Assembly (NCBI RefSeq): GCF_036785885.1
Contig: NC_092322.1
Location: 37,469,994-37,533,993 of the forward strand
Reading direction: 5' to 3'
DNA: 64,000 nucleotides
DNA from: Coffea arabica
Lineage: Eukaryota > Streptophyta > Magnoliopsida > Gentianales > Rubiaceae
Each line of letters opens with the position of its first letter. Position 1 is the stretch's first letter. The notes below the pieces were generated by a model that was not told the origin of the DNA, did no database searches, and saw only the letters and a list, made by a program, of their open reading frames with translations. Shown here in pieces: positions 14,396 to 56,424 of this stretch. The position numbers were made by a program, and so were the translations under genes.

Positions 14396-14399
14396 TCAT

Positions 14400-15790: not shown

Positions 15791-15799
15791 CCTCCAAAA

Positions 15800-18773: not shown

Positions 18774-18782
18774 TTTCTGTTA

Positions 18783-19255: not shown

Positions 19256-19264
19256 TTTCTGTTA

Positions 19265-19910: not shown

Positions 19911-23888
<3,978 letters not shown>

Positions 23889-24296
23889 GGCAGAAATATA
23901 ACAGGATTAACCAGAAACAGATAGGAACTATGGACTGTATCACACCAAAGGATAGTGAGAAATAGTGAGAAATGGGAATTTAGAACTCAAGAATTGCAAA
24001 GTGATTTCTACATGTAGACAAAGTATTATCCAAAAAGGTTTGCATGATATAGAGTAAACGGTCAACAACTGTTTTACAGAATTAGAAGTAAACTTCCAAG
24101 AAGACTGCTTGAACTTTAGCTGTATATCTAAGAAACTGAGAAAAGTTTGAAAAAGCAAAGAGGGAAGGTACCACCAAAGGGCCTTCTACAGGGAGTTGGC
24201 TTTGACTCTTTGATCAGTCTTGATAGTTTTGGGAAACGTGACAATGCAACTTTAGAGCTTTTGGGCTGTATGATAAATTGCAATGCCATGACCGCA

Positions 24297-27235: not shown

Positions 27236-28194
27236 CGTCAATGCATCTTGTGGAGGAAGAAATCCTCTATAGACACATGTCAGGACCAAGGAGCTCTGTT
27301 CGGACCTCACCCCCAAACCCAAATTGAGCCTAACTAACTATCTTAATTGGGGACTGCCAAATTTTCGGGGTAAGATCAAAGTCAGGATTGAAGAAGGACT
27401 TTACCTTTAGTATCCTAGTAGGACTCATGCTCATGTATGAGATAACTACAAGGAATAGAAGGATAACTCCGAACTCTTTCATAGATATCCAGGGGAGGGA
27501 GTCTTATAAATAATTGTAGGATGGACTAACAAAAGGTACAAAAAATATAGTGCATGCATTGTCTTTACGGGGAGTCACAACGGGGACTATTCCTAAACTG
27601 ATTTGAGCATTGAAGTTACAACGAGGGGATAATACTGCTGTTTGACTCATTGCAGGCCAGTTCGACTACGCCTGTTCGGTGTCCTGTTCGGATCATGCTG
27701 TCGGCGGAATCTCCACTTCTCATGAACAGTGACTTGATTTAGAACATATATGAAGTCCTAAGAAAAATGAGTATCTTCCTATTATCCTATATATAAAGCA
27801 TCAAGGATGGTTTTGGTGTTAGAATTTTATTTTCACTAGTGTTTCCATCTTTGTACTCATTAACAGTAATTAACGGTAAGGATTTACAGTAGATAACTAC
27901 TATATGCAAATCTTAAATAATTTTTTAGTAACTTCCATTAACTTCTAATATTTCAACTTCCAATAACTTGGAAGTTAATACATTAAAAGGAAAAAAAGGA
28001 ATAAAAACTTCCAATAACTCTTTTTTTGGAACTACCAACTGCCACTTTTTTATTATAAAAAAGTTCTACTTTTTTTTTGGGTTCAATTGTACACCCATTT
28101 CCAAGTATATGTAATATAGCCACAATTCTTGTATAGCTTGAGTAATTAATTTCAACGACCTTTTATCCTGGAGTAGTTTGAATGAATGAATCTA
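27235..28194. other. Intergenic DNA, possible LTR remnant
   Basis: From about 27280 to 27700 the composition changes (GTCAGGACCAAGGAGC... GGGAGGGAGTCTTATAAATA) and resembles a plant LTR with a TATA motif. No second copy, PBS or target duplication is seen. The rest is AT-rich flank. Confidence 0.3.
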
Positions 28195-28492
28195 GGGAGA
28201 ATTGTAATTTTGATCCCCAATCTATAGTGCACGCGCGTAATTAGTCCTCAATCTATTTCGAAAATCAATTTTGGTCCACAATCTATTCAATTTTGCGCTA
28301 AAAGTGAATAATTGACGGAATTTCTTCAATTTCAACCATAACCAAGTCACGTGAGATTACGTGCCGGCACTAAAACCCCCTTTTCAATTTTTTTAATTTC
28401 CGAAGCACGCTTTTTAATATTTTCAGCTTTGTCTTGCCTTTGGACATATTAAACAAAGACATTAAAGGCTAAAATTCACTAATCAAGGAGTG
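28195..28492 (+). repeat. MULE1 left TIR
   Basis: About 298 bp that pair, inverted, with 44940-45240. Matching blocks include CACGTGAGAT/ATCTCACGTG and the AAGGCTAAAATTCACTAATC phrase. It ends a short distance before the transposase start codon at 28684, so it probably carries the promoter. Confidence 0.85.
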
Positions 28493-28683
28493 GATCCCAC
28501 CAAAAAGGTTGAATATCAGAAAAAGAAACATTTGCTCTCGTATTTCTCATCCTGGTCTCTTCTCTTCAACAAAAGAACAACGAACCCTAAGAGCCAAAAT
28601 CAAGAATCAAAACGTGAAAAAATACGGAAAAATCTTGCCGAATTCAATCAAGCTGAAGCTGCTCGTGGTATTGCAAAGCAGAA

Positions 28684-31585: not shown

Positions 31586-34500
31586 TGTGAGGACTTGAAA
31601 AATTTCTTATTTTATCGAATATTATTGGTTTATTTAAATATTTACTCACCCGTTTTCTCCGAATAATTTATTCCAACCATTTTAAATCCATTCGTATCGA
31701 ACAATGTTCTCTTATATTTTTAAAACGTCCCGTTAGCAAATTTAATAATGAGTATACTTGTTTCGAGATGATATTTTAGCCGAAAGTACAATTACCTTGG
31801 AGAATTAAGAATGATCAATAGTAGATTGAGAAAAATTAATTGAGGAAGTAGAGGTGAATGGGTTCTAATTAAGTTACCCCGTGTTCACGTAGAAAGTTTT
31901 CGAAAAATCACACCGCGCGGCAAATTGGAGACTTGAGGAATCAATGTGTGAGTACTCATGGTTTATTTCTAAGATAACTATTTTTATGATTAATTACCCT
32001 AATATTAGTTACTTCTATCATCGTTACAAGAATTTCTTTTAAGTTTTACTTTACCGCGCGCGAATCAGAAAGTCGCATAAATCGAACCGAAGCGGCCAAG
32101 TGGAGATTTAAGAAACTTAATCTAGACTACTAAGAGTGAATAATTATAATGCTTAAGGAAGTGCATTAGAGGTTTAGTGCACAAGTGAAACAAACCCGAG
32201 AGGAAACGAGCACGAAACGCGCGCGTAGGCACACTATTGGAGAGTTGACTTTTGTGCACAAAGGCCACCAACCACCAAGCTTCCATGAGAAGCTTCATTA
32301 TCAGATTTTCACTCCCTCTCACTCTCTCAAAGCAGCCAGCCACCCCAAGGAGAAGAAGAACCAAAAACCTTCATCATCTCACTTCAATTTCTTGCACCAT
32401 TTCACTTCAAATATACCGTACAAACTCAAAACAACTTGGAGACTATCTTGGACTAGGAAGAGGACTTCATTCTCATGATTTTCTTGTAGCTTCAAGGTGA
32501 CCAAAATTTTTGAGTTTCAACACCCAAGAGGAAGTGAATGATCTAACCTTCTAAACTTGATTTTTGTAAGTTAGATTGGACTTGGAAGCTTGTAACTTTA
32601 TGTGGGTAACTTTGGTTGGTTGAAAATTATGTGAGTGGGTTCTATGAACTCCCACAATCGACTTGTTAGACTGATATGATGATTTTGGATGTGATTTATG
32701 TTGATTAAGTGTTAAACTATTGGTTATATGTTGAAAAAGTGGAAAGAAAATCAAAGGAAACCAAAGGGAGAAAGGGGCCGAATCTGCCCTGTTCTTGCCG
32801 CAGCCTTAGTTCAATTTTTTTGTGATCAAATTGTCTTGATTTTAATTTAGATATATTTTATAGGTTGTGTGGAAAGTTTCCACCAAAAATCACTTGATTT
32901 GGTTGGGTAAAAGTTGCATTTTTGAAAATCCTTCAAACCTGGAAAACGTGTACAGAGATACTCTGGCAGCGAATTTTGAACAAACATAACTCTTTGCACC
33001 GACGTCAAAATCGAGTTTTGTTTGTGGCATTTGAAATTAGAGACTTCCAGTTAGAAAACCGGTATAAAATTCATCCCTTGATTCGACTTGAGTGAACCGT
33101 ACTAGTTTTTCAAAGTTACCTGTCCTGTTTCATTGCTGTTCTAGAGAACCTATGATGTGCTGTGACTTGTTGCTTGAATTTAAGCTAACTATGAATAGAA
33201 TTCCAAAATAATTTTTTCTAAGAAATTGTAGCCCTGTGAATGTAGTTTCCAACGCCACCAACCATGCCTAATTCCAAGTTGAATTGACTGAGTTATGGCC
33301 AAATTACAGACCTGCACTAGAGATAGAAAACCCTAATTTTGGGCTAGCCGATGGCTTAGCTCGAATTGGGACTTATTATTTTGAAACTTTTGGTATTAAT
33401 CACCTACCAAATGTATCTTGGATTTTTATTAAAGCTTCTCTTCATAAATGAACCATGTTTGAGATGATTTCATTAGCCAAATGTTTGAAAACGGAAAACA
33501 GAAGCTTGAAGACAGATTTGTCTTCGGATTCCCTTGAACTTTGATAGTTTAGTTAACTACCTTCCCCTTTGAATTTTCAAGTGAAATTTGGTAGAGGGAT
33601 AGTTCTCATATGGGAGTTGAATTTTACCAATTTTTGTGTCGTTCAAAAACTGTTTTGACGTACGAATAAGTTACCAAATTTAAACTTCCAAATCTGGAAA
33701 ATTGCCTAACAGTCTCAATTTTTGGCCAATTTTGAGCTGCTATATCTTGACATTCAAAACTACGATTCTTGTTCCATTTATTGTGTTTTAAACTTTGATT
33801 GTAACTTTACTTGAATTTCAAATTTGAGAGGCTATTTCACATTCTGTGAATTTTGCTGAATTTCCAAAGTTTGCCAAAAACCAACCGCGAATCTGCCTTG
33901 GAAGTACAAGTCAGCAACTTCAAGCCAAAATTTGAGTGTCTTCCACTTAGAATTATGGAAAAGTGTCTTCTAGAAACTTTTAGTACTTCAAAACGAGTTT
34001 CCAACAGTACCAAGTTTTCTGATTTCGGACATACGAAAAGTGAGATATGATTTTTCAAAGAATGCACCTCTAATCTGAAATTTTCAAACTTGACGGGAAT
34101 TGAGTTTTTGGAGACTCTTCCCTATCCTCGAATACTAATTGACCATTTTGGACTTGTCTTCATGAAGGAAATCAGTTTTCCCTAGTGTTGTTAAACACCA
34201 CCTTCGAATCTTGAATTTTGAGCAATTAAGGCTCATTTTCATGATATTCTCTAAGATTGTACAAGTGTGCAATCTTCTTTGATAATTGGGGTTTTTAAAT
34301 GATAGTGTGTAACAGATAACTATTGTTTGCTCAGGATTTCAAGGGGACCTTCAAGAGGATCTTACAACGGACGTTTAAGTACTTGAATTGTGCAACACAT
34401 TCTCTTATTTTGATAGGTGAAAGTCAAGTGTATGTGAACTTGTTACATGCTTAATTGTTATTAGTAATTGGAAATTTTGAAAATGTTGAGTCTAGTGTGT

Positions 34501-36091
34501 ACTTTACCGCACTCGTTCTCATTTGAATGAATAATGATTGAATTGACTGAAATGAAATGAATGGATTGAAATGTATTGAGTGGATTGAATGAAATGAAAT
34601 GGCATGCTATGGCTGCATACGTCGCTGGAGTGAATCTCCTCGACTCATAAATGTTAAATGGGGAATGCCCAAACTCATAGACCAGCTTGGACTTGAGCCG
34701 GCATGGGATTGGTCGGGAACCTTGGTGAGCCGTGGGAATGAAATGATAAGTTTGATCTATTGGAGAGATCTTACTTGGTCTACTCGTGCAGTAGCACCTT
34801 TAACGCAGTTCGGGTCCGGTGGGGGGTTGTAAGGTGGAAGGACCTGTGAATAGAGCTGTAAACGAACCGAATCGAACCGAATATCTCATGTTTGAGTTCT
34901 GTTTGTTAAGCGATTCGAACAACGTTCGTGTTCGTTCGTTAATTTTCGAACACCAAATCTGTGTTCGTGTTCGGCTCGTTAGCAAAATTCGTGTTCGAAT
35001 TCGAGTTCATGTTTGGCTCGTTTAACATAAACGAGCCGTTCGCGAACATGTTCGAAATGTTCGAATCCAAATTATTTTAACCCTTAAATATGCCATGCAA
35101 ATCATTAATCATTCTAAAAAGCAATTAAAGCAACTAAGTGGCTAAATTCTATTATTCATTAACTATATAACTAATATTAACATAAAAATAACAAATAAAA
35201 CAAAGCAATTTGCCCTTTAAATATAAAAGTCTAGCCATAAAATTAACTCTAAAATTTGTCAAATGATAATTATGTCCATATTCGTGAACGTTCATTAAAA
35301 CTCATGTTCGCGAATGTTCGTTTAGAATGTTTGCGAATGTTCGTTAAAATTTGCGAATATGCTCGTGTTCGCTTGATTATTAATCGAACAAAAAAATTTG
35401 TTCAAATTCGGTTCGTTTAAGGTTTCGAACGAGTCTTTCACGAACACGAACGACTCGAAATGAACCGAGCTACCGAACAGCTTGGTTCGTTTAACAGCTC
35501 TACCTGTGAATTAAAGTGGAGTTTTACGAATTTAAAAATACCGACCTGGGTGACGGAGTGTCATCGTGGAAAGGTATTCAATCGAGGTTGGCAAATCAAG
35601 TGGAAATTAGTTTTCGAGAGCTACCATATCCTTGAATTATTTCTGTTTAAATTTCACTTGAATTGTTAATTACTCGAATATTATTGTTTTACTTGTTGGA
35701 TGGGATTGTTACTTGGACAACATGCTTGCATGTGTGTTCTTGGCTTCACGAGCAATCGCTCACCCCGTAAATTTATTTTCCTTAACAGGAATGGATTTGG
35801 AGTAAAACTCGAAAAAAATCCTTGAGATGTACTTTTGTGTTAGGGTTTCAAATGTAATCGATTAGACATCTTCTAGCAGTGGTATATTTTGAAAAATTAA
35901 TGTATTTTGAAGTTGTGATGTAAGATTGAATATTTATATATGGAAGCATCTCTATTTTCTTACTTTGTCTTGTCGTTTTAGTTATCATTGTATTAAGGTT
36001 GAACGAGAATTGTACTGAATCCTAGCGAGAGTTGGGCAAGAGTCCCGTCAATACCCTTTGGTTCGTTTTAAGGAGAAGTGGGGGCGTCACA
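31586..36091 (+). repeat. 5' LTR (with nested MITE)
   Basis: 4506 bp. Removing the MITE and one copy of its target duplication (660 bp) leaves 3846 bp, close to the 3863-bp 3' LTR. The two LTRs align end to end with many substitutions and small indels, for example a gap of about 27 bp near 38877. The insertion is therefore not recent. ORFs inside (such as 32185-32478) recur as LTR sequence at 39303 and are not taken as genes. Confidence 0.92.
34852..35501. mobile_element. 650-bp MITE nested in the 5' LTR
   Basis: Starts AGAGCTGTAAACGAACC and ends with the inverse (GGTTCGTTTAACAGCTCT). It is flanked by a perfect 10-bp direct repeat, ACCTGTGAAT (34842-34851 and 35502-35511). The subterminal parts are dense in TTCG/CGAA motifs such as GTTCGTGTTCG; the middle is AT-rich. 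The 3' LTR at 41987 lacks it, which gives a clean empty site. The 9- to 10-bp duplication suggests a Mutator-type MITE. Confidence 0.93.
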
Positions 36092-36092
36092 A

Positions 36093-36106
36093 TTGATATC
36101 AGAGTC
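36093..36106 (+). promoter_or_regulatory. Primer-binding site of the LTR element
   Basis: TTGATATCAGAGTC lies one base after the 5' LTR and resembles TGGTATCAGAGC, the initiator-tRNA-Met type PBS. Mismatches indicate decay. Confidence 0.7.
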
Positions 36107-36359
36107 TAAATTTCAGATCTTTGTAGTGTATCTTAGGCTTAAAAGTTTAGGATGCCGAACAGTGAAACTAGTTTGAAAATTTAGTGACAACTTGTAGGGC
36201 TGAAAATCGGAGCCTAGGTTTAAAGAGTTATTTGGGGAGATATTTGAGAGACTTTACTCTCGAGAATAGTGACTGGATAACTTAGTTATTCCTTAAGTGA
36301 TATTGAGCGAGTTAGCGGCTTTAAGTCTCTAATCCGGAAATTGTGGTTGTTTTGCAGGG

Positions 36360-36884
36360 ATGGAGAATGGAAATAGGAACCCTGCTGCTAATGGAAATGG
36401 TCATGCCAATGGCCATGTAGAGCCTCCTAGGCTTATTTACTATCGAACTCTTGGTGGAGGAGCACGTGTGCATTACTCACCCACTACTAAGTATTCTCGA
36501 TGTCCGTGTAGGTTGACATATGCATACCCGAATCACCTTGTACTAGCCCTTAACGACGAGCGTCGTCAGTTGGTGAACACCAACCGAGATCTGATCTAGG
36601 AGGTGGAGGAGCTGAGCCAGATGGTGAGTACTCAGGGCGAGAGGGTTACTGAGCTTGAGGAGGTATTGGCTGGCGAGGTGGCTACGGTCGAGGTCACTCG
36701 CGAGGAGCTTCAAAGAGTTAGGACTCCACATACTAGGTTAGATGAGGAGGTACGAGATCGGGCTTTCGGGATCCTAGCAGATATTAGTAGGTTGGTTGAT
36801 GAGGTGATGGACATTATTCAAAACCCGGTTCAGGAGAAGGATCCTGAGGAGGAGATTCCACCTGGTAGCCCTACTGTGGACTAG
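36360..36884 (+). pseudogene. Pre-gag coiled-coil ORF of the LTR element
   Basis: Starts ATG GAG AAT GGA after a plausible leader and reads about 174 codons to 36884, with one internal TAG at 36597-36599 that could derive from CAG. The N-terminal part is Asn/Gly-rich followed by LIYYRTLGGGARVHYSPTTK. The second half has a heptad-like pattern (VEELSQMVSTQGERVTELEE) suggesting a coiled coil. It does not match gag or any domain I recognise. Its place between PBS and gag makes it an accessory ORF of this family. Confidence 0.6.
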
Positions 36885-37213
36885 ATCCAGAGTGATAGAC
36901 CCTTTTGACTGATGCAGTTAGAATTAGTTGGGGTGATGCTAGTGCCAAGGCCATTGTATTTTTGTATGATTGTGTGGCCTATTTTTGAGGCACTTGACTT
37001 TACTTTAGTCATGTGTGACTAAAAGTACTCTTGTGGCACCTGTGTGCTATATTTTTTTATTTTCCTCATGACTTGCTAATTGTATGAATTTTGAAGTGTT
37101 AATGAATATAAATTATTGTTATTTTCAATGTTTTTCGATTGGCTCTTGTTTTAAATATTTCCTCGTGTAATCACCTTTATTTTTGCACTAGGTACTATTA
37201 GAATTATGGAAGG

Positions 37214-38500
37214 ATGAAGGAGTGGTCGAGACTGTGGGCAAGGGTCTAGATAAGCTCAATCTCATGGGGATGATCAAGGATCGGCAATTGGACCGACTCA
37301 GGGACAAGAGAATGTAGAGGGTAATCAAGTGGCTACTGCCATTAATAAAATGATTGATATCCTTGAACGCCTAACAGAGAGATAGGGTCCAGGACCACTT
37401 AACCAGCCCGAGAGTCAGGATAGAGGGGAAGATAGGGTTTTGGAGAGATTCCTAAAATTTAACCCGCCTAAGTTGATCCTGAGGTAGCGGAGAATTGGCT
37501 GGAGAGGATGACCAATATATTCGCTGCTTTAAACTATACCGAAGATAGGCGAGTGAATTTTGCTGCTTTCCAATTTGAGGGAGTAGCACGTGTTTGGTGG
37601 GACGTGATAAAGGGAAAGTGGGAAAGAGCCCAAACCCCTTGGATTTGGGAGAATTTCACAAGGAAATTTAATGAGAAATTTCTTCTGCCTCTGATTCAAG
37701 AGAAGCGAGAGGATGAGTTTATAAAATTAAGACAAGGAACTCTTAGTGTCGCGGAGTACGAGGGGAAGTTTACTAAAGTTTCTAAGTACGCTCCCGAATT
37801 GGTGATTAATGAGCGAAAAAAGATAAGACGTTTTGTATAGGGGCTTAATGTAGAAATTCAGGAGGGCTTGGCCGCAGCCCAAATCTCTACATTTTCTAAG
37901 GTACTAGAGAAAGCGCGGAGAGTCGAGAATGCAAGAATGCAAGTTAGGAACTTCCACAATAAGAAAATGAACTTTTCTAATCCTACTTTTGGACATGCTA
38001 GTAAGAGTGCCCCATTTTCAAAAAGGAAAAAAGGAATGGGAGGAGTGGAGATACCTAATACAAAAAGGGGAACTCAAAATAGAGAAGGTCACAATAGACG
38101 GGGTTAACTGAGAGGAACACCTTCTAGTGGTTCGGCAGTGATACCTCAAGTTAATTGTGGTTACTGTAGTAAATCAAATCACTCGGAGAATTACTGTTGG
38201 AGAAAGTCTGGGAAGTGTTTGTTATGTGGTAGTGCCGAGCACTAGCTCGCGACTTGTCCAAATAAACTGAAGGTAGGAGGTAGCACCCAAAAGCCAGAAA
38301 AGTCAACCTCTAAACAGACCAATGCTGGGGAAAGTCGACCTAAGGTACCTGATAGGGTTTATGCACTGGACCATCAACAGATACCCGATACGACTGAGGT
38401 GGTTGAAAGTACGATCCCTATTTTCTACCGTTTAGCTAAGGTCTTAATTGATTAGGGCGCAGCACATTCTTTTGTAAACTCTAATATTATGGGTGGAATA
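37214..38500 (+). pseudogene. Degenerate gag and protease start
   Basis: The retrotransposon gag core reads FAALNYTEDRRVNFAAFQFE, VWWDVIKGKW, FNEKFLLPLIQEKREDEFIK and LRQGTLSVAEYEGKF. Further on are two zinc knuckles, CGYCSKSNHSENYC and CLLCGSAEH..ATC, then a protease-like VLID.GAAHSFVN. In-frame stops occur at about 37383, 37838, 38105, 38243 and 38453. Most are explained by CAG/CAA to TAG/TAA changes. A short deletion near 37472 removes part of the gag N-terminal motif. Confidence 0.85.
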
Positions 38501-38697
38501 GACTTGAATTCAAGTAAGTTATCATATGATTTAGAGGTTAGGACGCCTATTGGGGAATCAAAGTTCGATTGTTAATTGAATGAATAGAAATTGTGAAATA
38601 TGGATCGGAGAGTGTAAGTTAGTGATTGATTTGAAGAGCATAACTATTAAGGAAATGATATTATTTTAGATGTGAATTTTGAAAACGAAATTCTTTT

Positions 38698-38710
38698 AAA
38701 GAGGGGAGGA
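38698..38710 (+). promoter_or_regulatory. Polypurine tract
   Basis: AAAGAGGGGAGGA lies immediately before the 3' LTR, as expected for plus-strand priming. Confidence 0.75.
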
Positions 38711-41700
38711 TGTGAGGACCCGAAAAATTTTCTTATTTTATCGAATATTATTGGTTTATTTAAATATTTACTCATTCGTTTTTTCCGAATAATTTATTCC
38801 AGCCATTTTAACTCCATTCATATGGAACAATGTCTCTCTTATATTTTTAAAACGTCCCGTTAGAAAATTTAATTTTTCGAAAGTTCGTTTAAGTGATGAA
38901 TAACGAGTATACGTGTTTCGAGACGATATTTTAGCCGAGAGTACAATTATCTTGGAGAATTAAGAATGATCAATAGTAGATTGAAAAAAATTAATTGAGG
39001 AAGTAGAGGTGAATGAATTCTAATTAAGTTACCCCGTGTTCGCGTCGAAGGTTTTCGAAAAATCACATCGCACTACAAATTGGAGACTTGAGGAATCAAT
39101 GTGTGAGTACTCATGGTTTATTTCTAAGATAACTATTTTTATGATTAATTACCCTAATATTAGTTACTTCTATCTTCGTTACAAGAATTTTTTTAAGTTT
39201 CACTTTATCGCGCGCGGATCGGAAATTCGCGTAAATCGAACCTAAGCAGCTAAGTGGAGATTTAAGAAACTTAATTTAGACTACTAAGAGTGAATAATAA
39301 TAATGCTTAAGGAAGTGCATTTGAGGTTTAGTGCACAAGTGAAACAAACTCGAGAGGAAACAGGTACGAAATGCGCGCGTACGCGTACTATTGGAGAGTT
39401 GACTTTTGTGCACAAAGGCCACCAACCACCAAGTTTCCATGAGAAGCTTTATTATCAGATTTTCACTCCCTCTCACTCTCTCAAAGCAGCCGGCCACCCC
39501 AAGGAGAAGAAGAACCAAAAACCTTCATCATCTCACTTCAATTTCTTGCACTATTTCACTTCAAATTTACCGTACAAACTCAAAATAACTTGGAGACTAT
39601 CTTGAACTAGGAAGAGGGCTTCATTCTCATGGTTTTCTTGGAGTTTCAAGGTGACCAAAATTCTTAGTTTCAAAACCCAAGAGGTAGTGAATGATCTAAC
39701 CTTCTAAACTTGATTTTTGTAAGTTAGATTGGACTTGGAAGCTTGTACTTCATGTGGGTAACTTTGGTTGGTTGAAAATCATGTGAGTGGGCTCTATGAA
39801 CTCCCACAATGGACTTGTTGGACTGATATGATGATTTTGGATGTGATTTATGTTGATTAAGTGTTAAACTAGTAGTTATATGGTGAAAAAGTGAAAAGAA
39901 AATCAAAGGAAACCAAAGGGAGGAAGGGGCTGAATCTGCCCTGTTCTTGCCGCAGCCTTAGTTCAATTTTTTTGTGATCAAATTATCTTGATTTTGATGT
40001 AGATATGTTGTATAGGTTGTGTAGAAAGTTTCCACCAAAAATCACTTGATTTGGTTGGGTAAAAGTTGCATTTTTGAAAATCCTTCAAACCTGGAAAATG
40101 TGTACAGAAGTACTCTGGCAGCGAATTTTGAATAAACATAACTCTTTGCTCCGACGTCGAAATCGAGTGCCGTTTGTGGCATTTGAAACTAAACACTTCC
40201 AATTTTCTAAAGGTATAAAATGCATCCCCTGATTCAACTTGAGTGAACCGTACTAGTTTTTCAAATTTACCTATCCTGTTTCACTGCTATGCTAGAGAAC
40301 CTGTGATGTGCTGTGATTTGTTGATTGAATTTGAACTAGCTATGAACAGAATTTCAAAATGATTTCTTCTGAGAAATTGTATCCCTATTAATGTAGTTTC
40401 CAACGCCATCAACTGTGCCCAATTCCAAGTTGAATTGACTGAGTTATGGCCAAATTACAGACCTGCACCAGAGATAGAAAACCCTAATTTTGGGCTAGCC
40501 GATGGCTTAGCTAGAATTGGGACTTGTTATTTTGAAACTTTTGGTGTTAATCACCTACCAAATGTATGTTGGATGTTTCTTAGACCTTTTCTTCATAATT
40601 GAACCATGTTTGAGATGATTTCATTAGCCAAATGTTTGAAAATGGAAAACGGAAGCTTGAAGACAGATTTGTCTTCGGATTCCCTTGAATTTTGGTAGTT
40701 TAGTTAACTACCTTCCCTGTGAATTTTCAAGTGAAATTTGGTAGAGGGATAGTCCTCATATGGGAGTTGAATTGTGCCAATTTTTGTGTCATTCCAAAAC
40801 TATTTTGATGTACGAATAAGTTACCAAAGTTAAACTTCCAAATCTGGAAAATTGCCTAACAGTCTCGATTTTTGGCCAACTTTGAACTGCTATATCTTGA
40901 CACTCAAAACTCCGATTCTTGTTCAGTTTGTTCTGTTTTAAACTTTGATTATTGCTCTAATTTATTTTCAAATTTGGGAGGCTATTTCACATTCTGTGAA
41001 TTTTGCCGAATTTTCAAATTTGCCAAAAACCAACCGCGAATCTGTCTTGGAAGTAAAAGTCAGAAACTTCAAGCCAAAATTTGAGTGTCTTCCACTTAGA
41101 ATCATGGAAAAGTGTCTTCTAAGAACTTTAGTACTTCAGAACTAGTTTCCAACAGTACCAAGTTTTCCGATTTCGGACCTACGAAGAGTGAGATATGATT
41201 TTTCAAAAAATGCACCTCTAATATGAAATTTTCAAACTTGACGGGAATTGAGTTTTTGGAGACTCTTCCCTATCCTCCAATGCTAATTGACCATTTTGGA
41301 CTCATGAAGGAAATCAGTTTTCCCTTGTGTTGTTAAACACCATCTTTGAACCTTGAATTTTGAGCAATTAAGGCTCATTTTCATGATATTCTCTAAGATT
41401 GTACAAGTGTACAATCTTCTTTGATAATTGGGGTTTCTAAGTGATAGTGTGTAACAGATAACTATTGTTTGCTCAGGCTTTCAAGGGGACCTTCGAGAGG
41501 ACCTCACAACGGATGCTTAAGTACTTGAATTGTGCAACACACTCTCTTATTTTGATAGGTGAGTATCAAGTGTATGTGAACTTGTTACGTGCTTAATTGT
41601 TATTAGTAATTGAAGATTTTGAAAATGTTGAGTCGAGTGTGTACTTTACCGCACTAGTTCTTATTTGAATGAATAATGATTGAATTGATTGAAATGAAAT

Positions 41701-42573
41701 GAATGGATTGAAATGTATTGAATGGATTGAATGAAATGAAATGGTATGCTATGGCTGCATACGTCACTGGAGTGAATCTCCTTGACTCATAAATGTTAAA
41801 TAGGGGACGCCCAAACTCATAGGCCAACCTTGGACTCGAGCCAGCATGGGTTTGATCAGGAACCTTGGTGAGCCGTGGGAATAAAATGGTAAGGTTGATC
41901 TATTGGAGAGATCTTACTTGACCTACTCGTGCAGCAGCGCCTTTAACGCAGTTCGGGCCCGGTAGGGGGTTGTATGGTGGAAGGACCTGTGAAGTAAAGT
42001 GGAGTTCTACAGATTTAAAAATACCGACCTGGGTGACGGAGTGTCATCGTGGGAAGGTATTCAATCGAGGTTGGCAAAGCAAATGGAAATTAGCTCCTGA
42101 GAGTTACCATATCCTTGAATTGTTTCTGTTTAAATTTCACTTGAATTGTTAATTACTCGAATATTATTGTTTTACTTGTTGGATGGGATTGTTACTTGGA
42201 CAACGTGCTTGCATGTGTGTTCTTGGCCTCACGAGCAATCATTCTTCCCGTAGATTTGTTTTCCTTAACAGGAACGGACTTGGAGTAAAATTCGAAGAAC
42301 CCCTTGGGATGTACTTTTGTGTTAGGGTTTCAAATGTAATCGATTAGACATCTTCTGGCAGTGGTATATTTTGAAAAATTAATGTATTTTGAAGTTGTGA
42401 TGTAAGATTGAATATTTATATATGAAAGCATCTGCATTTTTTTACTTTGTCTTGTCGTTTTAGTTATCATTGTATTAAATGTGAACGAGAATTGTACCGA
42501 GTCCTGGCAAGAGTTGGGTAGGCGTCCCGCCGATACCCTTTGGTTCGCCTTAGGGAGAAGTGGGGGCGTCACA
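38711..42573 (+). repeat. 3' LTR
   Basis: 3863 bp, TG...CA termini, homologous over its length to the 5' LTR but without the MITE. It is followed by the AAGCT target duplication. Confidence 0.93.
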
Positions 42574-42578
42574 AAGCT

Positions 42579-43168
42579 TAGAGAGGAAGCAGGTGTTGCA
42601 GCCAGTCAAATGAGTGGACAGGGGCAGGAAACACAAGCAAATCAGGAGGATATGAGTCTCCCACAACTAGATGACATGAGAGTAGATAACTTTGTAAGTC
42701 AAGCATGTAATTTGTGTAAATAGATATACCTGTGTTTGTAACATTGTAGCAGCTAATGCATTTTATTCTTTGTTGCAGGTCAGGGGCAACACTTCAAATG
42801 CAAAGAAGAGGAGAACAAAAACATCAAGAAAATCTGTTGTAATTTTATTACTTAATGTACATTTGGTTATTGTTTCTTGTGAGTTCAATATTTAGTGGTT
42901 AAATGCTGATGTATTGTAGGGAAAAGGCACCAAACGAAGTGCAAAGCAAATAGATTCATCACAGAACAACCCAGCAACTGCTGATGACAACATAATATCT
43001 TCTGCCCCTACTGCTCAACCAAACGTGCATGAAACTTTTGGGATCCCAAAGCATTTTGTGGTACATAGCAGTCAACCAATTGGCCAAGGAGGAATAGGGA
43101 TACCTTTTAGGATCAAAGATGTTCAAACCCACCTTGCAATGACAAAGGGAAAGCCAACTGATATGTAG
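42579..43168 (+). pseudogene. MULE1 transposase, 3' part
   Basis: Coding sequence continues from the AAGCT site as REEAGVAASQMSGQGQETQA, to a donor after 42693. It then runs 42779-42838 and 42920-43168, all with GT-AG borders and a kept frame, ending at TAG. The tail is Lys/Thr/Ser-rich (RRTKTSRKS) and low in complexity. It lacks its own start and is separated by 11 kb from the 5' part. Confidence 0.8.
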
Positions 43169-44330
43169 CTAATCAGCACCTTTTGGATGTTGCTAATCAG
43201 TACCTAACTTAATGTTGCTAATCAGCACCTTTTGGATGGTTGTGTTGCTGAATTTGATTAGTAGTAGCTTTTGTCAGATTAGTAGCTATTGTCAGTATTT
43301 GGAACTCATGTATCTTGAGAACAAGCCAGCATGAACATGATAGTTTTGAAGTTTGTAATCATTTCTGCCAAATGACAAAACAGTGTCTATTTGATGATTG
43401 TAATGAATTCTGAATGTATCTTTTGTACATTAGTTCCAAGCCAGCAATGAAATCTTCTTTTATCTTTTGGTATTCTTTTGTTTTTTGGTATGTTACCATT
43501 TGTTTTGTTTTAATATCCAACATTACATATAATGTTCAGGTTTTATAGTAGCTTACTGGTCGTTCTGTTTTCATTTTGTTTTCTAGTCGTTCTGTTCCAT
43601 TACATATGATGTTCAGGTTTTTGAAGTTTAGTTTTCATTATGTTTTCTGGTCGTTCTAGATTGTGGAAATTATCATAAATAGGTGCTTCAAGTTTTATAT
43701 AGGATTCTAGGCAGGAAAATGCCTTTATTTGATCAATGGGATGGTGGTTGTGAAAGTATGCTTCTAGCTGTGGATGACTTGGATGCATTAAATTCCTATT
43801 ATTCTTCCATGTTTCTTTACATCTGCAATGCAAGGATTGCAGTGAATTTCCTATTCTGATTTTTGAGACTGTTTAATCGAATGATATGTAACCCATGTTC
43901 ATGCATAAACTGGAAATTACATATGTAAATGAACTCAACATCCAGTTAACTTGTAAATGAACTTTAAAAACACAACTAATTAAAAGCAGATTGGAACATC
44001 CAATATATTCATTCATTCAAAATAAACAGAATGTACTAGCCGATGTCAGTAAATTACAACTTACACATTCACCCATTCCAACAAAAAATACCAAAATTAC
44101 AATCCGGATGAATGTCTTTCATCTCTATTCATTCAAGAAAATAGAAAGTACTAGCCTGATAGTAGATTACAACTTACACATTCACCCATTCCAACAAAAA
44201 CTACCAAAATTACAGAACAGGAGGAATTTCTTTCATCTCTAAGTTTAGATAGTACCTAGCTTAGCTTAATACTTAACACATTGTCCTTGAGCTGCTTAGT
44301 TGATACCAAGACAGTTCAACCTTCTGCCTT
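43169..44330. other. MULE1 interior between convergent genes
   Basis: T-rich 3' flank of the transposase, including repeated GTTTTCTGGTCGTTCT phrases near 43555-43660. A tandem pair at about 44010-44243 (unit about 117 bp, with ACATTCACCCATTCCAAC) probably lies in the 3' UTR of the minus-strand GRF gene. Confidence 0.6.
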
Positions 44331-44721
44331 TTACACTAGTAACACAATAACCAGCAGAAGTACCAATAACAAAATTGCTAACACTAATTTTCTTTCCCTT
44401 GCTCTTAGCCTCTCAATTGTAGCATTCTTAGAGTTCATGCTCCGTAGTAGTCCAGGAATCAGAGCTGTTGACCTTTTACATATTTTCGGATCATGCCATT
44501 CAAAATAATCGCTTCCTTTTCCTCTATCACCCTTCACAGCCAACATCATAAAGCTTTAGCTCAAAACTCAGAAATAGAGACAGAAAAGTCGAAATCAAAA
44601 ACAAAGACAACCATATCTTCTTGATTGCACAAGTGAAATTTCTTCTCCTAGGATTGTTGTCTGTCCAAGAAGTAATCATTATTGCTTGCTGCTTGCAGTC
44701 GCAATTTTTCATTGGTTCCAT
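44331..44721 (-). pseudogene. MULE1 GRF zinc-finger protein with hydrophobic tail
   Basis: Exon 1 (44721 downward) reads MEPMKNCDCKQQAIMITSWT then NNPRRRNFTC. After about 90 bp the frame DRGKGSDYFEWHDPKIC resumes and continues to ALIPGLLRSM and a C-terminal hydrophobic run, LVLAILLLVLLLVIVLLV. This order (CxC, TSW, NPxRR, YFEW, C-terminal membrane segment) matches plant GRF-type zinc-finger proteins. The expected intron would begin after AAGAAG, but the base there is A (ATATGG instead of GTATGG), so the donor seems to have been lost by G-to-A change. One expected Cys before YFEW is Ser. Probably inactive. It is convergent with the transposase. Confidence 0.7.
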
Positions 44722-44939
44722 GACGAGCTAAATTGAAAAGAGAAGAAACTCGACCCCAAGTTTTTGCCCAGATCTTGCAACTTTTTGCCAGAATGACGAA
44801 TTTTTTGGTCTAATTAGAATGGGATTAAGGCTCCTAGGGTTTGTTCTTGAGTTGGAAGAAAGAAGATGAGGAAAGAAGGAAATAGAGGACGTCGTCGTCC
44901 TACTTTGTTTTGTGATTTATTTCTACACATGGGGGGGGT

Positions 44940-45240
44940 CCACTCCTTGATTAGTGAATTTTAGCCTTTAATGTCTTTGTTTAATATGTCCAAAGGCAAG
45001 ACAAAGCTGAAAATATTAAAACACGTGTTTCAGAAATTAAAAAAAATTGAAAAAGGGGTTTTAGTGCCTGCACGTGATCTCACGTGACTTGGTTCCGGTT
45101 GAAATTGAAGAAATTCACATCAATTGTCCACTTTTAGAGCAAAATTGAATAGATTGGGGACCAAAATTGATTTTCGAAATAGATTGGGGACTAATTACGC
45201 GTGTACACTATAGATTGGAGATCAAAATTACAATTCTCCC
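44940..45240 (-). repeat. MULE1 right TIR
   Basis: Inverted partner of 28195-28492, with a few substitutions and small indels. It is the likely promoter region for the minus-strand GRF gene. Confidence 0.85.
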
Positions 45241-45241
45241 T

Positions 45242-45841: not shown

Positions 45842-46549
<708 letters not shown>

Positions 46550-51009: not shown

Positions 51010-51018
51010 AAATTATTT

Positions 51019-51126
51019 GGGTAAAATATACGGAACCCCCCTATGGTTTCGCGAAAAGACACGGAACCCCCCTATCGTTTAGAAACATACACATAAACGC
51101 CCTAAACTTCATAACTAAAGTGAAAA
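51019..51126 (+). repeat. MULE2 left TIR
   Basis: Pairs inverted with 56121-56228 over about 108 bp, with few differences. It lies about 200 bp upstream of the GRF start codon. Confidence 0.9.
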
Positions 51127-51322
51127 TGACCTATAACCTGCTGAGTGAACTACTGATGATGGGTCTGCGAGGTTCTTTTGAAAAGATCGTGAGTTTCATT
51201 CCCAAGCTACCCTTCAGTTGCTATATAGAAGGCACTACATATTAGGGGAGAATAGATTTGAAGCTATCAAAGAGTGAAAGGAAAAAGGAAGAAGATCTAC
51301 TTCTGAGTATATCGAAGTCGTC

Positions 51323-51751
51323 ATGTCCACTTCTGCAAATTTTGGAGGAGGTTTGACAGATCTAAGGTATGAATGGTCTCGATGCTTCTGCAAGAAAAGA
51401 GCAAAAATCAAGATCGTGGAGTCCAACAAACCCTCAAAAGGTAGGCTGTATTACATTTGTGAAGATCAATCCTGCTCCTTTTGGGCATGGTGCAATCCTC
51501 TAAGAAGGGATGGAATGGGCAATGAATGTACTAGTAAAAGTCCAGAAGCAAGATTAGACAAAAGTTCTGGGTTCTCTCCAAGAGTGAACAGTAATGAAGG
51601 TATGCTGGCTGTGAACAATGGTGACATTTTGTTGGGGCTACATGCAAAGTTGAGTACGGTTGAAGGCACTATGGGGATGTTGAAAGTGATAATGATTTTA
51701 TCTCTTATTATTTGTTGTTTATCTCTAGTTATTGCTGCTTATAGAAAATAG
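51323..51751 (+). CDS. GRF-type zinc-finger protein with C-terminal membrane segment
   Basis: A single-exon ORF of 142 residues with no break. Residues about 21-57 form a GRF-type finger: CFC near the start, then NKPSKGRLYYICED and CSFWAW. A polar linker follows, and the C terminus is a predicted membrane helix (VIMILSLIICCLSLVIAAY). The GRF domain is a small zinc-binding module known from nucleic-acid-processing enzymes such as APE2 and TOP3A. Small plant GRF proteins with a membrane tail form a poorly characterised family. It is encoded inside MULE2, convergent with the transposase; MULE1 has a counterpart in the same relative position. Any role in transposition is inference. Confidence 0.85.
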   Translation: MSTSANFGGGLTDLRYEWSRCFCKKRAKIKIVESNKPSKGRLYYICEDQSCSFWAWCNPLRRDGMGNECTSKSPEARLDKSSGFSPRVNSNEGMLAVNNGDILLGLHAKLSTVEGTMGMLKVIMILSLIICCLSLVIAAYRK

Positions 51752-52099
51752 TAGTTTGGCTAGTGGCAGTATAATGATGTACCAAATAATGTAATGATTT
51801 TAGTTTATGAAAAAATTCCAAATTTTGTCATGATTTGTATTCTTGTCTGAAAGAAAGATAATAACCATACAACCTGTTTACTCATGAACCAACTATAATT
51901 TAGATAGTCATAATATGATAACCACAATCCAATATATGGCATTACAAAAAAGAGCAATAATGCTAATAATGTCATTACAAAAAAGAGCATCACTTACAAA
52001 ATATGTTAATCCATTATACAATGTTTGCTCTGAAGATAGCATGTATACCATTACAACTTGTTTACATGGACACAAGTCCTAAAAATAACATTCCTGATC

Positions 52100-55000
52100 C
52101 TAATTTTTCTTAAATCTTTTGGATCGAGAATTGGGGTTGTTATCAGTAACTGCAACAGTGCTGCTTTGCTGAGATGTTTGATGCACTGGTGCTTCTCTGG
52201 TTGGGGCTGAAGTGGAAGCCGTTCTTGCCCCTCGCTAGGTATTGCTTGTTGGAGCCTGCAACCAGAGTAAAAAATTTACTGTTGGAATAATTATCAAGAG
52301 TACATAGTGCAAGAAAAATTCAAGTACTTAAATGTACCTTGTACAACTTGGATTTGGGATGAAGAGGTTCCTTACAAGTTCTCCTATTATGGCAAGCTTT
52401 TAAACATCTCTTACAATATACTGGCAACCCCTTTTTGGAAGCTCTTTGTGGATCTCTCGGTTCATCCGGACCTCTTCTCCTAAGTTTTTTAGGTCTCCCA
52501 GGTTGTTTTTTCACAAATTGTGGATTTAACAGCTGCATTCCACTATCAATCCAGTGTTCTTTGGATGGAATAGCTCCAATGCTATAAGCATATGCCCTCA
52601 AGTATGCCTCTTTACTATAGCACTCATGGACATAGTTTTCAACCTTCATCCGCATGCTTTGAATGGCAGAAATAGCATGCACACATGGAATTCCAGTTAA
52701 CTAGAATGCACCACATGAACAGCTTCTACGTTGCAAGTTCACAACGGAGGTTCTGTTGAAACCATCAACCTCAAATGATTCAATACTATCAAATATAGCA
52801 ATACAATGTCTGCTATTCTCTACACTTTTGGCTAGCTTCTCAACAATGTTTAGACACAATTTGCCTCCATATTTCTCCATGCCTTGTCTCTTCAATGTCA
52901 ATCGTTGCATTAACTTTCTTCTGAAAAATTCAAGAAAAGTCACAATTGGCTCGTCTCTTGCTTTTAAAATGTAGTTGTTAAAACTCTCATTCAGATTGTT
53001 GACTGAAATATCAGTCTTAGCAGCCATTCCATAATGTGCTCTAGACCACAAGTAATATGGCAGCCTTTTTAACCAACCAGCAGCAGTAAGGTTCTCTCCA
53101 TTTTGTGGTTGAGCTATCTCCAAAGCATTCAATGCTCTCTTGAAATCATCACCATTAGTTGCTGATGCAGTAGCCCAAAACAATTCTCTCAATTCACTGT
53201 CTTTGAACTTTGCCTTAAAATTCTCAAACAGATGCTTAAGGCAAAATCTGTGTTCTATACCAGGAAATAGCTCTTCTATAGCATGTACCAGTCCTTTTTG
53301 CCTGTCAGAAATGAAGGTATAAGGCACTACATTGCCCCTTCCAATATAAGTAATCAGTTCCTTCAAAAATCAAGTCCAGCTATTATAGTTTTCCACTTCA
53401 ACAATAGCAATGCCTATGGGAAACATATTGTCATTCTCATCCATTCCAAGTGCTGCTAACAGCTGACCTCCAAAGGGTCCCTTCAAAAAGCAACCATCTA
53501 GGCCAATGATTGGTCTACAACCTGCAAGAAAGCCCTTTTTAAGAGCACCCAAGCCATCGAACAGCCTTTGAAATGTTGCCCTTTCCTCAATAGACCTCCT
53601 GTCTATTTGTATAGCTATATGACTGTCTGGATTTGACTGTCTAACCGTGGCAGCATAATCCCACAGCCGTTCATATTGCTCCATATCACAACCTTTGATT
53701 GCCTCCCTGGCCTTCCTCTTAGTCCTGTATGCTTTTTTGCTACTTATATTAACCATGAATCTTCTTCTGGCATCATTAATAATGCCATCCAAGCTGCAAT
53801 TAGGGTCATCTCGAACCTTCTCTTGAAACTTTCTGCTCAGATAAGTTGAGGTTGCATGCTTGTTAGTGTACTCTCTGCCGCAATGGTGCTCTCTCTTTAG
53901 TGTTTTGATTTAAAAAGTGTCAGTCCTATTAACTCTGCTTGCATGAATCCTCCAAGAATATCCTTTTACACATTTGGCAGTTATCCACCAACTGTCATTG
54001 TTGATATATAAAACTTCGTATCCCTCTCTAATGTTCCATTCCATAAGTACTTCTCTAAATTTTGTAAAATGAGTTAATTTCTTCCTAACCTTTAATTCAA
54101 AATTTGGCTTGTTAAACTCCACTGAAGCATTGAAATATGAGTAGTCAGGCCCATTTTCATCACTAGAATATAGGAAGTCTTCATCTGCAGTCACAGGTTC
54201 ATTCCATTCCTCACTGTCAAGGCCAATAGGTTGGTCTCCTCCATGCTGATGCTGTACTGTGGACTCCTCACCTTGTGCTTCCTCATGTTGTTGCTGCTGC
54301 TTATTCATGTCTTCAGTTTGCTGATGCTGTGTTGTGGACTCCTCAACTTGTGGTTGCTAATGTTGTTGTTGCTGCTCATTCAAGTCACCAATTTGCTGAT
54401 TTGTTTGAGGTATAGTTGAACCAACAGTTGCAAAGATGTCCTCATCTTCTGCAAATTCTAGGCCTTCTCTCAACCAATCTGGACCAGGTTCTTCGTTTCC
54501 ATCACAGTGATGCTGCTGTTCATTGTTGACTTGATTCTTCTCAATAGAGGTTCTGTCAAAGTCACAATGTTGTTCATTGTTGACTTGATTGGTCTCAACA
54601 GAGGTTCTGTCAAAGTTACATTGATTTTCACATTCTTCTTTACTTTGGTTCACTGAAGAAACCTCTTGCTGGCTGTCGACAGCATCTATTCTGGTTGTTT
54701 GCTGAAATAATTTTCTGACAGTTTTTGTAACTGCTCTCTTTACAGGTTGCACCACAGTTTGTCTTTTCCTCGATGGAGTTTTACCACCCTTTCTTCTGTT
54801 TTTCTTAGTTGGTTCGAAGGGATTTTGTGTGCCATCATTAGTTTCTACAGCAGTTGGGCCATCTAAATCATTTTCTTGCCCTCTTGTGTCACCAATATAT
54901 GGTTCAAAACCAGTCAGATCAACAGGATTTTGTGAAGCTCCGACACCTTTTCTAGTCAAATCTGAATTTATCTCTGAAGAACCTTCATTGTACGGTAAAG

Positions 55001-55387
55001 CAAGTGGACCATCATTCGTCACTCTTTCGAATAAGAGCTTACCATCTGGTGAGATAATTTTGAGAGGCGTCTGACCTGCCTCTACATATATTTGCATATA
55101 AGGAAGCCCTTCATAAAGGTAGTCAACAATTCTATGTCCACGTCATCATTTATTGGGATAACACCTACATTCACATCATGGTCTGGAATGGAATACCAAA
55201 ATTTTGCACATGCCGCTTCTTTTTCAATTTTGGAGTACAGGTTGAATAATGAAAATGTTGATAACTCATCAGGATCGCAATTGTGAAACACTCTCACTAA
55301 ATCACTTGTATACCTAATATTGGGATGATGTATAAACCGCCCACCATAGTGCATGTGGATATCCACTGTCCTAAAAGGATCCGACAT
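52100..55387 (-). pseudogene. MULE2 mudrA-like transposase
   Basis: From ATG at 55387 the order is as follows. First a PB1-like N terminus (DIHMHYGGRFIHH), a long polar linker, and a MuDR DNA-binding part (FTKFREVLMEWNIREGY with TAKCVKGYSWRIHAS). Then the MULE DDE core (IGLDGCFLKGPFGGQLLAAL, FISDRQKGLVHAIEE, NLNESFNNYILKA), a SWIM finger (CSCGAF.LTGIPCVHAIS) and a zinc knuckle (YCKRCLKACHNRRTC). The last intron is 52256-52337 and the stop lies at 52100-52102. Breaks are one small frameshift near 55095 and five in-frame stops, at about 54357, 53910, 53370, 52701 and 52235. Frame is otherwise kept for 3.3 kb. It is clearly a different lineage from the MULE1 transposase. Confidence 0.9.
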
Positions 55388-55814
55388 GGTCCCCAATCTA
55401 AATTATTTAATCAACACTTTTAGAATTCAAATATAGATTAATAAACTATATTAAGCTACATCACACTTTTAGATTATAACAACAATCAGATTATTAAGTG
55501 AAATCTGATTTGTAGTCAAATCCAAACCCGACACATATTTTTTCCTCCTGACATCAACCACATACTCCAAAAAAGACCCATATTCTCCAAAAAAAACTAA
55601 AAAAATTAAGATCTTTACATTTTTAAACCCTATTTTCTCTGATAAATCACCTAAATATGGGCCACCAAATATAAAAATGACAGATATAGGGTAATGTGGG
55701 TTAATGTGGAAAAGGAATAAACAAATTGGAAAAGGATTACAAATCCTAAACATTAAATGGACTGAATATTGAACAATAAGTTCTGATTCTTACCTAGAAA
55801 TGTCGAACAAGCTT

Positions 55815-55928
55815 CACGATCAGATTTCCTCACCAATCTGTCTTTCCCTTCTTCGCGACCGAATGCAGCATCATGATCAGATACAACCACCAATCTGTCA
55901 CTTCCTTCTTCGCGATCGAATGCAGCCA
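55815..55928 (-). repeat. 57-bp tandem pair in the MULE2 leader
   Basis: Two units of 57 bp, each with GATCAGAT, CACCAATCTGTC, CTTCTTCGCGA and GAATGCAGC. They lie between the right TIR and the transposase start, so in the promoter or 5' UTR. Confidence 0.75.
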
Positions 55929-56120
55929 CGGCTTTTTCAAATCAGATTCACGATATTTCAGCAACAATTTAGTATACAAATCCCTTGTCTTAGGATTTTT
56001 TTCTTACACAGGATGAACAAGAAAAGAGTCAGTTGTTCATTCTCTCTCCCTTTCTATTATAAATGAGGGTATTTTGGGTATTCGACCTGCAGCCGGTAAC
56101 TCAACCGGTTAAGAAGTCTA

Positions 56121-56228
56121 TTTCCACTTTAGTTATGAAGTTTAGGGCGTTTATGTGTATGTTTCTAAACGATAGGAGGGTTCCGTGTCTTTTCGTGAAA
56201 CCATAGGGGGGTTCCGTGTATTTTATCC
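56121..56228 (-). repeat. MULE2 right TIR
   Basis: Inverted partner of 51019-51126. It ends directly at the AAATTATTT target duplication. Confidence 0.9.
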
Positions 56229-56424
56229 AAATTATTTTATAATATGTAAAATAATTGTGAGGTAGCTGTTTTCGATTAAATGAGGATTATTGGAAAGAAT
56301 TATTGGTAGGTTGTTGTATAAAATATTGTTTAATGTTGAATAAAGATTTGGTATGTATGTGTTGTAAAGTAGCGGACTATAAGAAAAGCAATGAGCAGCG
56401 AAATTGTAATTTTTTATAGTTATT

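What the first reader, a model, noticed from the sequence alone, without database searches (positions are those of the whole stretch)
51019..56228. Two-gene Mutator elements: mudrA-like transposase plus a convergent GRF-finger, membrane-tailed ORF
Seen directly: MULE2 has a perfect 9-bp target duplication and TIRs, a minus-strand mudrA-like gene, and a plus-strand 142-aa GRF zinc-finger ORF (51323-51751) ending in a hydrophobic helix. MULE1 (28195-45240) has the same layout in mirror image: transposase on plus, GRF-finger plus hydrophobic tail on minus (44331-44721) just inside the other TIR. The two elements have different TIRs and well-diverged transposases, so the pairing is unlikely to be one chance capture. 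Maize MuDR also has a second gene (mudrB) facing mudrA; the GRF protein could be an accessory factor of this kind. A membrane tail is unexpected for a transposition factor and hints at nuclear-envelope or ER anchoring. That function is inference.
Basis: partly seen in the sequence, partly recalled or inferred. Interest (0 to 1): 0.82.

Follow-up and report, generated by a model that had tools for sequence, protein, structure and literature searches.

The report
Jumping genes with membrane-tailed zinc-finger partner
Two distantly related Mutator jumping genes lying close together in what looks like a plant genome each carry, besides the enzyme that moves them, a small second gene for a zinc-finger-like protein with a membrane anchor, which may be an overlooked helper of the jumping process but whose function and wider occurrence are untested.

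Summary
MULE2 (51019-56228) has TIRs of about 127 bp, a perfect 9-bp target duplication, a minus-strand mudrA-like gene (now broken) and an intact plus-strand 142-aa ORF with a significant GRF zinc ribbon (PF06839, E 8.7e-8) and a strong C-terminal hydrophobic helix. MULE1 (28194-45241) has 308-bp TIRs, no recognisable target duplication, a plus-strand mudrA split by an 11-kb LTR retrotransposon and, convergent beside the other TIR, a two-piece GRF-like gene with a stronger hydrophobic tail. Its GRF match stays below Pfam's cut-off. Of 53 ORFs (70-250 aa) in the window only these two have such C-termini. The transposases are 33% identical and the TIRs unlike, so the layout occurs in two MULE lineages. 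Best reading: a MuDR-style second gene for a tail-anchored, nucleic-acid-binding accessory protein. Selection is weakly supported for MULE2's protein and not shown for MULE1's. Convergent second genes are known (MuDR, Abermu ORFR); nothing in my open-access paper listings describes one as GRF or membrane-tailed. No plant genome could be searched: recurrence, tree congruence and dN/dS are untested.

The parts
51010..51018 (.). MULE2 left 9-bp target site duplication AAATTATTT
   Evidence: read directly
51019..51146 (+). MULE2 left TIR (about 127 bp)
51323..51751 (+). MULE2 second gene: 142-aa protein, GRF zinc ribbon (residues 21-58), helix 100-141 in the model with hydrophobic segment about 120-140; intact
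   Evidence: ORF; PF06839 E 8.7e-8; NEIL3, E 0.0018; helix; hydropathy
52320..55387 (-). MULE2 mudrA-like transposase gene, broken: in-frame stops whose codons begin (in + coordinates) at 54357, 53910, 53370 and 52701, and one frame change near 55.1 kb
56099..56228 (-). MULE2 right TIR
56229..56237 (.). MULE2 right target site duplication AAATTATTT
28194..28501 (+). MULE1 left TIR (308 bp, 93.5% to the right one)
29142..31585 (+). MULE1 mudrA-like transposase (DBD_Tnp_Mut, MULE, SWIM; then a CCHC-like knuckle read by eye), with frame changes near 30.99 and 31.51 kb, interrupted at 31585
31586..42573 (.). LTR retrotransposon nested in MULE1 mudrA (LTRs 31586-36091 and 38711-42573, 5-bp TSD AAGCT); not part of the MULE
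42574..43170 (+). probable 3' end of MULE1 mudrA (one frame continues across the empty site; further introns and the end read by eye)
44331..44721 (-). MULE1 second gene: GRF-like, two pieces in different frames, C-terminal hydrophobic helix; probably damaged in this copy
44932..45241 (-). MULE1 right TIR

Best explanation
Both are two-gene Mutator-like elements of the MuDR layout: each gene starts inside one TIR and the two run towards each other. One codes for a MURA-type transposase; the other for a small protein made of a GRF (or GRF-like) zinc ribbon, a short helical, possibly coiled-coil segment and a C-terminal membrane anchor. Most likely mechanism (inferred): the second protein is transcribed from its own TIR side, inserted after translation as a tail-anchored protein into the ER and nuclear membranes, oligomerises through the helix, and uses the ribbon facing the cytosol or nucleoplasm to hold nucleic acid of the element (DNA ends or transcripts), helping reinsertion or shielding the element from silencing: a role comparable to maize MURB or Arabidopsis VANC, by an unrelated protein. 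Shown: element anatomy, the paired genes, the GRF match (firm for MULE2, weak for MULE1), the hydrophobic tails, relatives with the same make-up. Inferred: membrane insertion, nucleic-acid binding, helper role.
For: TSD and TIRs enclose both genes in MULE2. MULE1 has the same relative order and convergence. PF06839 E 8.7e-8 for MULE2; two NEIL3 chains are the only PDB sequences matched up to E 1, at 0.0018 and 0.0043. The only 2 of 53 window ORFs (70-250 aa) with C-terminal hydropathy of 2.5 or more are these two (MULE1 by its second piece of 72 aa); 2 of 444 in shuffled sequence. Relatives: P0001 98% and P0002 50% for MULE2, P0003-P0005 for MULE1. Against neutral simulation without stops, MULE2/P0002 shows excess GRF identity (reached in 17 of 4000 runs; 29 of 4000 with AT bias) and a tail more hydrophobic than expected (219 of 20000; 659 with AT bias). 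Start codons lie about 304 and 841 bp (MULE2) and 948 and 520 bp (MULE1) from the element ends (first value corrected by one base). Published convergent second genes in MULEs.
Against: Only two elements in one window of one unidentified host. MULE1's GRF is below Pfam's cut-off, and its relation to MULE2's is not demonstrated. For MULE1-type relatives, ligand and tail conservation do not exceed neutral expectation, and its GRF piece is if anything less conserved than the rest (3542, 3446 and 3799 of 4000 runs reach its identity); tail alone 661, 1502 and 2718 of 20000, with AT bias 1211, 3731 and 5017. The whole-protein run also leaves MULE2's tail unremarkable (297 of 4000; 573 with AT bias). 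The relatives come from contigs of 739-1477 bases without context, so they are not shown to lie in MULEs. The structure model is poor (mean pLDDT 48). Active MULEs with a transposase gene only are known.
Confidence: 0.55

Rival explanations
1. Independent gene captures: MULEs often pick up host sequence, and these two picked up members of a plant family of small membrane-tailed GRF proteins, which are passengers without a role in transposition.
For: MULE gene capture is well documented. The two GRF families are not demonstrably each other's kin. GRF genes are annotated as ordinary genes in sorghum and rice (passages). MULE1's copy is probably damaged and its family shows no clear selection signal.
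Against: Same slot, same convergence and same tail in two elements with unlike TIRs and 33% identical transposases; my expectation, not tested, is that captures come as fragments in varying place and orientation. MULE2's second gene is a complete ORF with a near-identical relative.
Confidence: 0.3
2. The small genes are host genes around which MULE ends happened to come to lie; the TIR pairs enclose them by accident.
For: MULE1 has no target duplication, so its ends could come from two copies.
Against: MULE2 has a perfect 9-bp duplication around one element with TIRs about 94% alike. MULE1's TIRs are 93.5% alike over 308 bp.
Confidence: 0.05
3. A special case of the best explanation: the second protein does not help transposition itself but acts against host silencing (VANC-like), for instance by binding element RNA at the ER, where plant small-RNA steps take place (recalled).
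For: VANC of VANDAL MULEs is a published anti-silencing gene; a nucleic-acid-binding ribbon on a membrane anchor would fit.
Against: No direct evidence; no sequence link to VANC was tested.
Confidence: 0.2

Closest known systems
Maize MuDR (mudrA + mudrB)
   Same: Two genes transcribed in opposite directions, 4.9 kb, 9-bp duplication; that each gene starts at one TIR and they converge is recalled.
   Different: mudrB is reported to seem restricted to Zea, function undetermined.
Abermu type II MULEs (ORF1 transposase + ORFR), PMC9168764
   Same: ORFR runs opposite to ORF1 and lies between ORF1 and the 3' TIR; it changes faster than ORF1 and its function is unknown.
   Different: The main text has no occurrence of GRF or transmembrane.
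VANDAL / Hiun (vanB, vanC) and Kaonashi (Ulp1) MULEs
   Same: MULEs with further genes; VANC has an anti-silencing role.
   Different: Mostly called non-TIR MULEs, though some relatives have TIRs, with other second proteins; the elements here have clear TIRs and a GRF or GRF-like ribbon.
GRF zinc ribbon of NEIL3 (also APE2 and topoisomerase 3 alpha, recalled)
   Same: Sequence match to PF06839 and to NEIL3 chains 7omk_A and 7jl5_A.
   Different: Those are domains of larger soluble DNA enzymes (recalled); here the ribbon stands alone on a hydrophobic tail.

Membership tests
Mutator-like element (MULE) | MULE/MuDR transposase domains | tested here: met
   PF10551 and PF03108 in both elements; SWIM PF04434 in MULE1 only, no SWIM hit in MULE2
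Mutator-like element (MULE) | Long terminal inverted repeats | tested here: met
   308 aligned bp, 93.5% (MULE1) and 127 aligned bp, 94.5% without gaps counted (MULE2)
Mutator-like element (MULE) | 8-11-bp target duplication, MULE2 | tested here: met
   Perfect 9 bp
Mutator-like element (MULE) | 8-11-bp target duplication, MULE1 | tested here: not met
   No match at the flanks for 8-11 bp; decay or recombined ends would also give this
MuDR-type two-gene element | Second gene convergent with mudrA, next to the opposite TIR | tested here: met
MuDR-type two-gene element | Second protein homologous to MURB | not testable with these tools
   No MURB sequence was on hand
GRF zinc ribbon (PF06839) | Score above Pfam's gathering cut-off, MULE2 protein | tested here: met
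   32.6 against 25.9 bits; relative P0001 32.6, P0002 25.1, just below
GRF zinc ribbon (PF06839) | Score above Pfam's gathering cut-off, MULE1 protein | tested here: not met
   17.9, 16.1 and 12.5 bits for three joins, no hit for single pieces; relatives: P0005 15.0 bits, P0003 and P0004 no GRF hit
GRF zinc ribbon (PF06839) | Presumed Cys ligands kept among relatives | tested here: met
   MULE2 type: C21, C23, C46, C51 in 3 of 3 rows. MULE1 type: Cys before the YFE motif in 3 of 4 rows, Ser in the window copy
Tail-anchored membrane protein | Single hydrophobic helix at the extreme C-terminus | tested here: met
   Sequence and, for MULE2, model only; membrane insertion was not tested
Pack-MULE | No transposase gene, host fragments only | tested here: not met
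   Both elements carry mudrA-like genes
Abermu | Sequence identity to Hvu_Abermu | not testable with these tools
   Sequence not on hand

The most novel reading that the evidence does not exclude
Many of the small membrane-tailed GRF proteins annotated as plant host genes are in truth the second gene of a broad class of two-gene MULEs: a tail-anchored nucleic-acid-binding helper that ties transposition or escape from silencing to the nuclear envelope or ER, kept while TIRs and transposases diverged.
Probability: 0.25. Interest if true: 0.82.

Novelty: new variant of a known kind. Interest (0 to 1): 0.56.

Why it matters
What the second protein of two-gene MULEs does is still open for mudrB and for Abermu ORFR. 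A second gene with a recognisable domain (GRF) and a membrane tail, in the same slot of two MULE lineages, makes the question testable by localisation and nucleic-acid binding. If it is general, plant gene sets hold transposon genes under a host label, and membranes enter the picture of DNA transposition.

Tried and rejected
Scans for loci: relatives of the second genes were sought in genome contigs (P0002: 19 pattern stretches, none a relative) and viral contigs (P0001: 7 stretches, none; A2: 39 stretches, none). These are bacterial, archaeal and viral collections, so nothing follows for plants. A third match to the MULE2 TIR in the window turned out to be a short element without room for these genes (18783-19255).

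Structure: AlphaFold of the MULE2 protein with 3 rows gave mean pLDDT 48, with short strands in the GRF part at low confidence and a long C-terminal helix, above 80 in residues 121-140. I judged a fold search useless and ran none.

Rejected argument: broken mudrA beside an intact GRF ORF in MULE2 as a sign of selection. By my own arithmetic (no call), five defects in about 3 kb predict about 0.7 in 429 bp. dN/dS, tree comparison and recurrence could not be done: no DNA for P0001-P0005, no plant genomes. The protein searches gave few relatives: 2 of 5 candidates, 3 of 1483, 3 of 39.

Literature (open-access PMC only; subscription journals mostly missing). Listed and matching papers: 20 of 27, 20 of 1131, 1 of 1 (on NEIL1 and NEIL3, not opened), 20 of 177, 2 of 2, 15 of 3183, 30 of 2512, with none of the three GRF phrases in any of the 30, 13 of 13, 10 of 2445, 12 of 17. 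No listed title or abstract start links a GRF zinc finger with a MULE; one paper listed holds the word GRF once and MULE twice (PMC9832951, not opened). Unlisted papers were not seen.
Full report
What is there. MULE2 spans 51019-56228 with the perfect duplication AAATTATTT on both sides and TIRs that align over 127 bp with 7 mismatches. The plus-strand ORF 51323-51751 codes for 142 aa. It matches the GRF zinc ribbon PF06839 with E 8.7e-8, 32.6 bits against a cut-off of 25.9; the only solved sequences matched up to E 1 are two NEIL3 chains, E 0.0018 and 0.0043. The minus strand holds a mudrA-like gene from 55387 to 52320 with DBD_Tnp_Mut and MULE domains in separate ORFs and no SWIM hit, four in-frame stops and a change of frame. 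This copy is therefore not autonomous now.

MULE1 spans 28194-45241 with TIRs of 308 aligned bp and 20 mismatches. No 8-11-bp duplication is visible. Its mudrA starts at 29142 on the plus strand, has DBD_Tnp_Mut, MULE and SWIM domains, changes frame twice, and is cut at 31585 by an LTR retrotransposon (31586-42573, duplication AAGCT); across the empty site one reading frame goes on. Without the insert the MULE would be about 6 kb. Beside the right TIR, on the minus strand, lies the second gene, 44721-44331, in two pieces in different frames.

Is MULE1's second gene really GRF? The first piece reads CDCKQQAIMITSWTDNNPRRRNFTC, the second KGDRGKGSDYFEWHD followed by a helix-like stretch and the tail. 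Alone, neither piece matches a Pfam family. Of 20 joins listed by a script I tested two: E 0.012 and 0.17. The junction that relative P0004, continuous over this place, suggests gives E 0.0034; with it the window copy does not start its intron with GT. All are below Pfam's cut-off. Of its relatives P0005 has a weak GRF match (E 0.027), P0003 and P0004 none; these three lack part or all of the first half. In all three a Cys stands where the window has Ser. I read this as a diverged GRF-type protein with a damaged copy in the window; the label is likely, not certain.

Are the tails more than chance? Among 53 ATG-started ORFs of 70-250 aa in the window, two have a mean hydropathy of 2.5 or more over 19 residues within the last 35: the second piece of the MULE1 gene (3.47) and the MULE2 gene (2.83); the next is 1.94. 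In 30 windows shuffled within 500-bp blocks, 2 of 444 such ORFs reach 2.5. The MULE2 model shows one helix from 100 to 141, mean pLDDT 83 and 86 in residues 121-140, in an otherwise poor model.

Relatives and selection. A database of 5.8 billion proteins, in which plants seem to be scarce (my inference from the few hits), holds two MULE2-type relatives (P0001 98%, P0002 50%) and three MULE1-type (P0003 91%, P0004 65%, P0005 80%, over 45, 73 and 49% of the query). No DNA or context was available for them. I simulated neutral change without stops from the window DNA to the same protein divergence. MULE2 against P0002, runs of 4000 that reach the observed value, with AT-biased mutation in brackets: GRF identity 17 (29), four Cys kept 244 (177), tail hydropathy 297 (573), as few polar residues in the tail 527 (751), Cys and few polar residues together 34 (31). 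Tail alone at its own divergence (7 of 21 identical), runs of 20000: hydropathy 219 (659), few polar residues 751 (1291). MULE1 type: no measure is unusual for P0003, P0004 or P0005, and the GRF piece is if anything less conserved than the rest; tail alone, hydropathy 661, 1502 and 2718 of 20000 (1211, 3731, 5017), few polar residues 9983, 9980 and 5797 (11607, 12676, 7816). The tail-alone test was designed after the first one. So selection is weakly supported for MULE2's protein and not for MULE1's.

One origin or two? The transposases share 33% over 416 aa, the TIRs are unlike, and profile comparison of the two second-gene families gives P 0.0069 and probability 5.6% with shallow profiles. 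This fits deep divergence from one two-gene ancestor or two acquisitions; the data do not decide. The shared slot, convergence and domain order favour inheritance, or repeated acquisition for a use (inference).

Known ground. MULEs with a second gene transcribed against the transposase are known: MuDR (PMC2725143 and PMC6446971, passages) and Abermu type II, whose ORFR runs opposite to the transposase next to the 3' TIR (PMC9168764, sections 15, 16 and 23, and passages). That paper reports Ka/Ks below 1 for ORFR with faster change than the transposase and considers both capture and descent; its main text holds neither GRF nor transmembrane. A 2026 review of gene capture names VANC and Ulp1 in MULEs; its main text holds no GRF (PMC13317346, passages). 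GRF genes appear under host labels in a sorghum and a rice paper (passages). The name At4g04775-like for small GRF proteins is recalled; in the two papers found with that name the passages seen give no domain.

Verdict. The layout is real and repeated in two elements. It is a new variant of the two-gene MULE: a second gene with a GRF or GRF-like ribbon and a membrane tail. Function, recurrence and congruence are open.

Noticed in passing
window 18774-19264: Short MULE without a gene seen (MITE-like): TIRs of about 135 nt, 88% complementary, 205 nt apart, perfect 9-bp duplication TTTCTGTTA; TIR 73% like MULE2's over 70 bp.
   Followed up: partly
window 31586-42573: LTR retrotransposon nested in MULE1 with very long LTRs (about 4.5 and 3.9 kb, 93% identical over 3251 aligned positions) and a short inside in which I saw by eye only a gag-like ORF. 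LTR divergence (K2P 0.073) is about that of the MULE1 TIRs (0.068) although it must be the younger insertion.
   Followed up: partly
window 11700-17821: Large imperfect inverted repeat (arms about 11.7-14.4 and 15.9-17.8 kb; the 25 of 64 pairs listed are 70-93% complementary, one of them the MITE above), with internal repeats, perhaps a foldback element.
   Followed up: no
window 19911-23906: Minus-strand ORFs that read like an ER-type calcium ATPase, and a Smr-like gene near 4.9-8.5 kb; labels by eye from translations.
   Followed up: no
window 45842-46504: Minus-strand 220-aa ORF that looks like a dirigent protein by eye, just outside MULE1.
   Followed up: no
window 44011-44241: Tandem copies of about 118 bp, 87% alike, between the stop of the MULE1 second gene and mudrA.
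   Followed up: no
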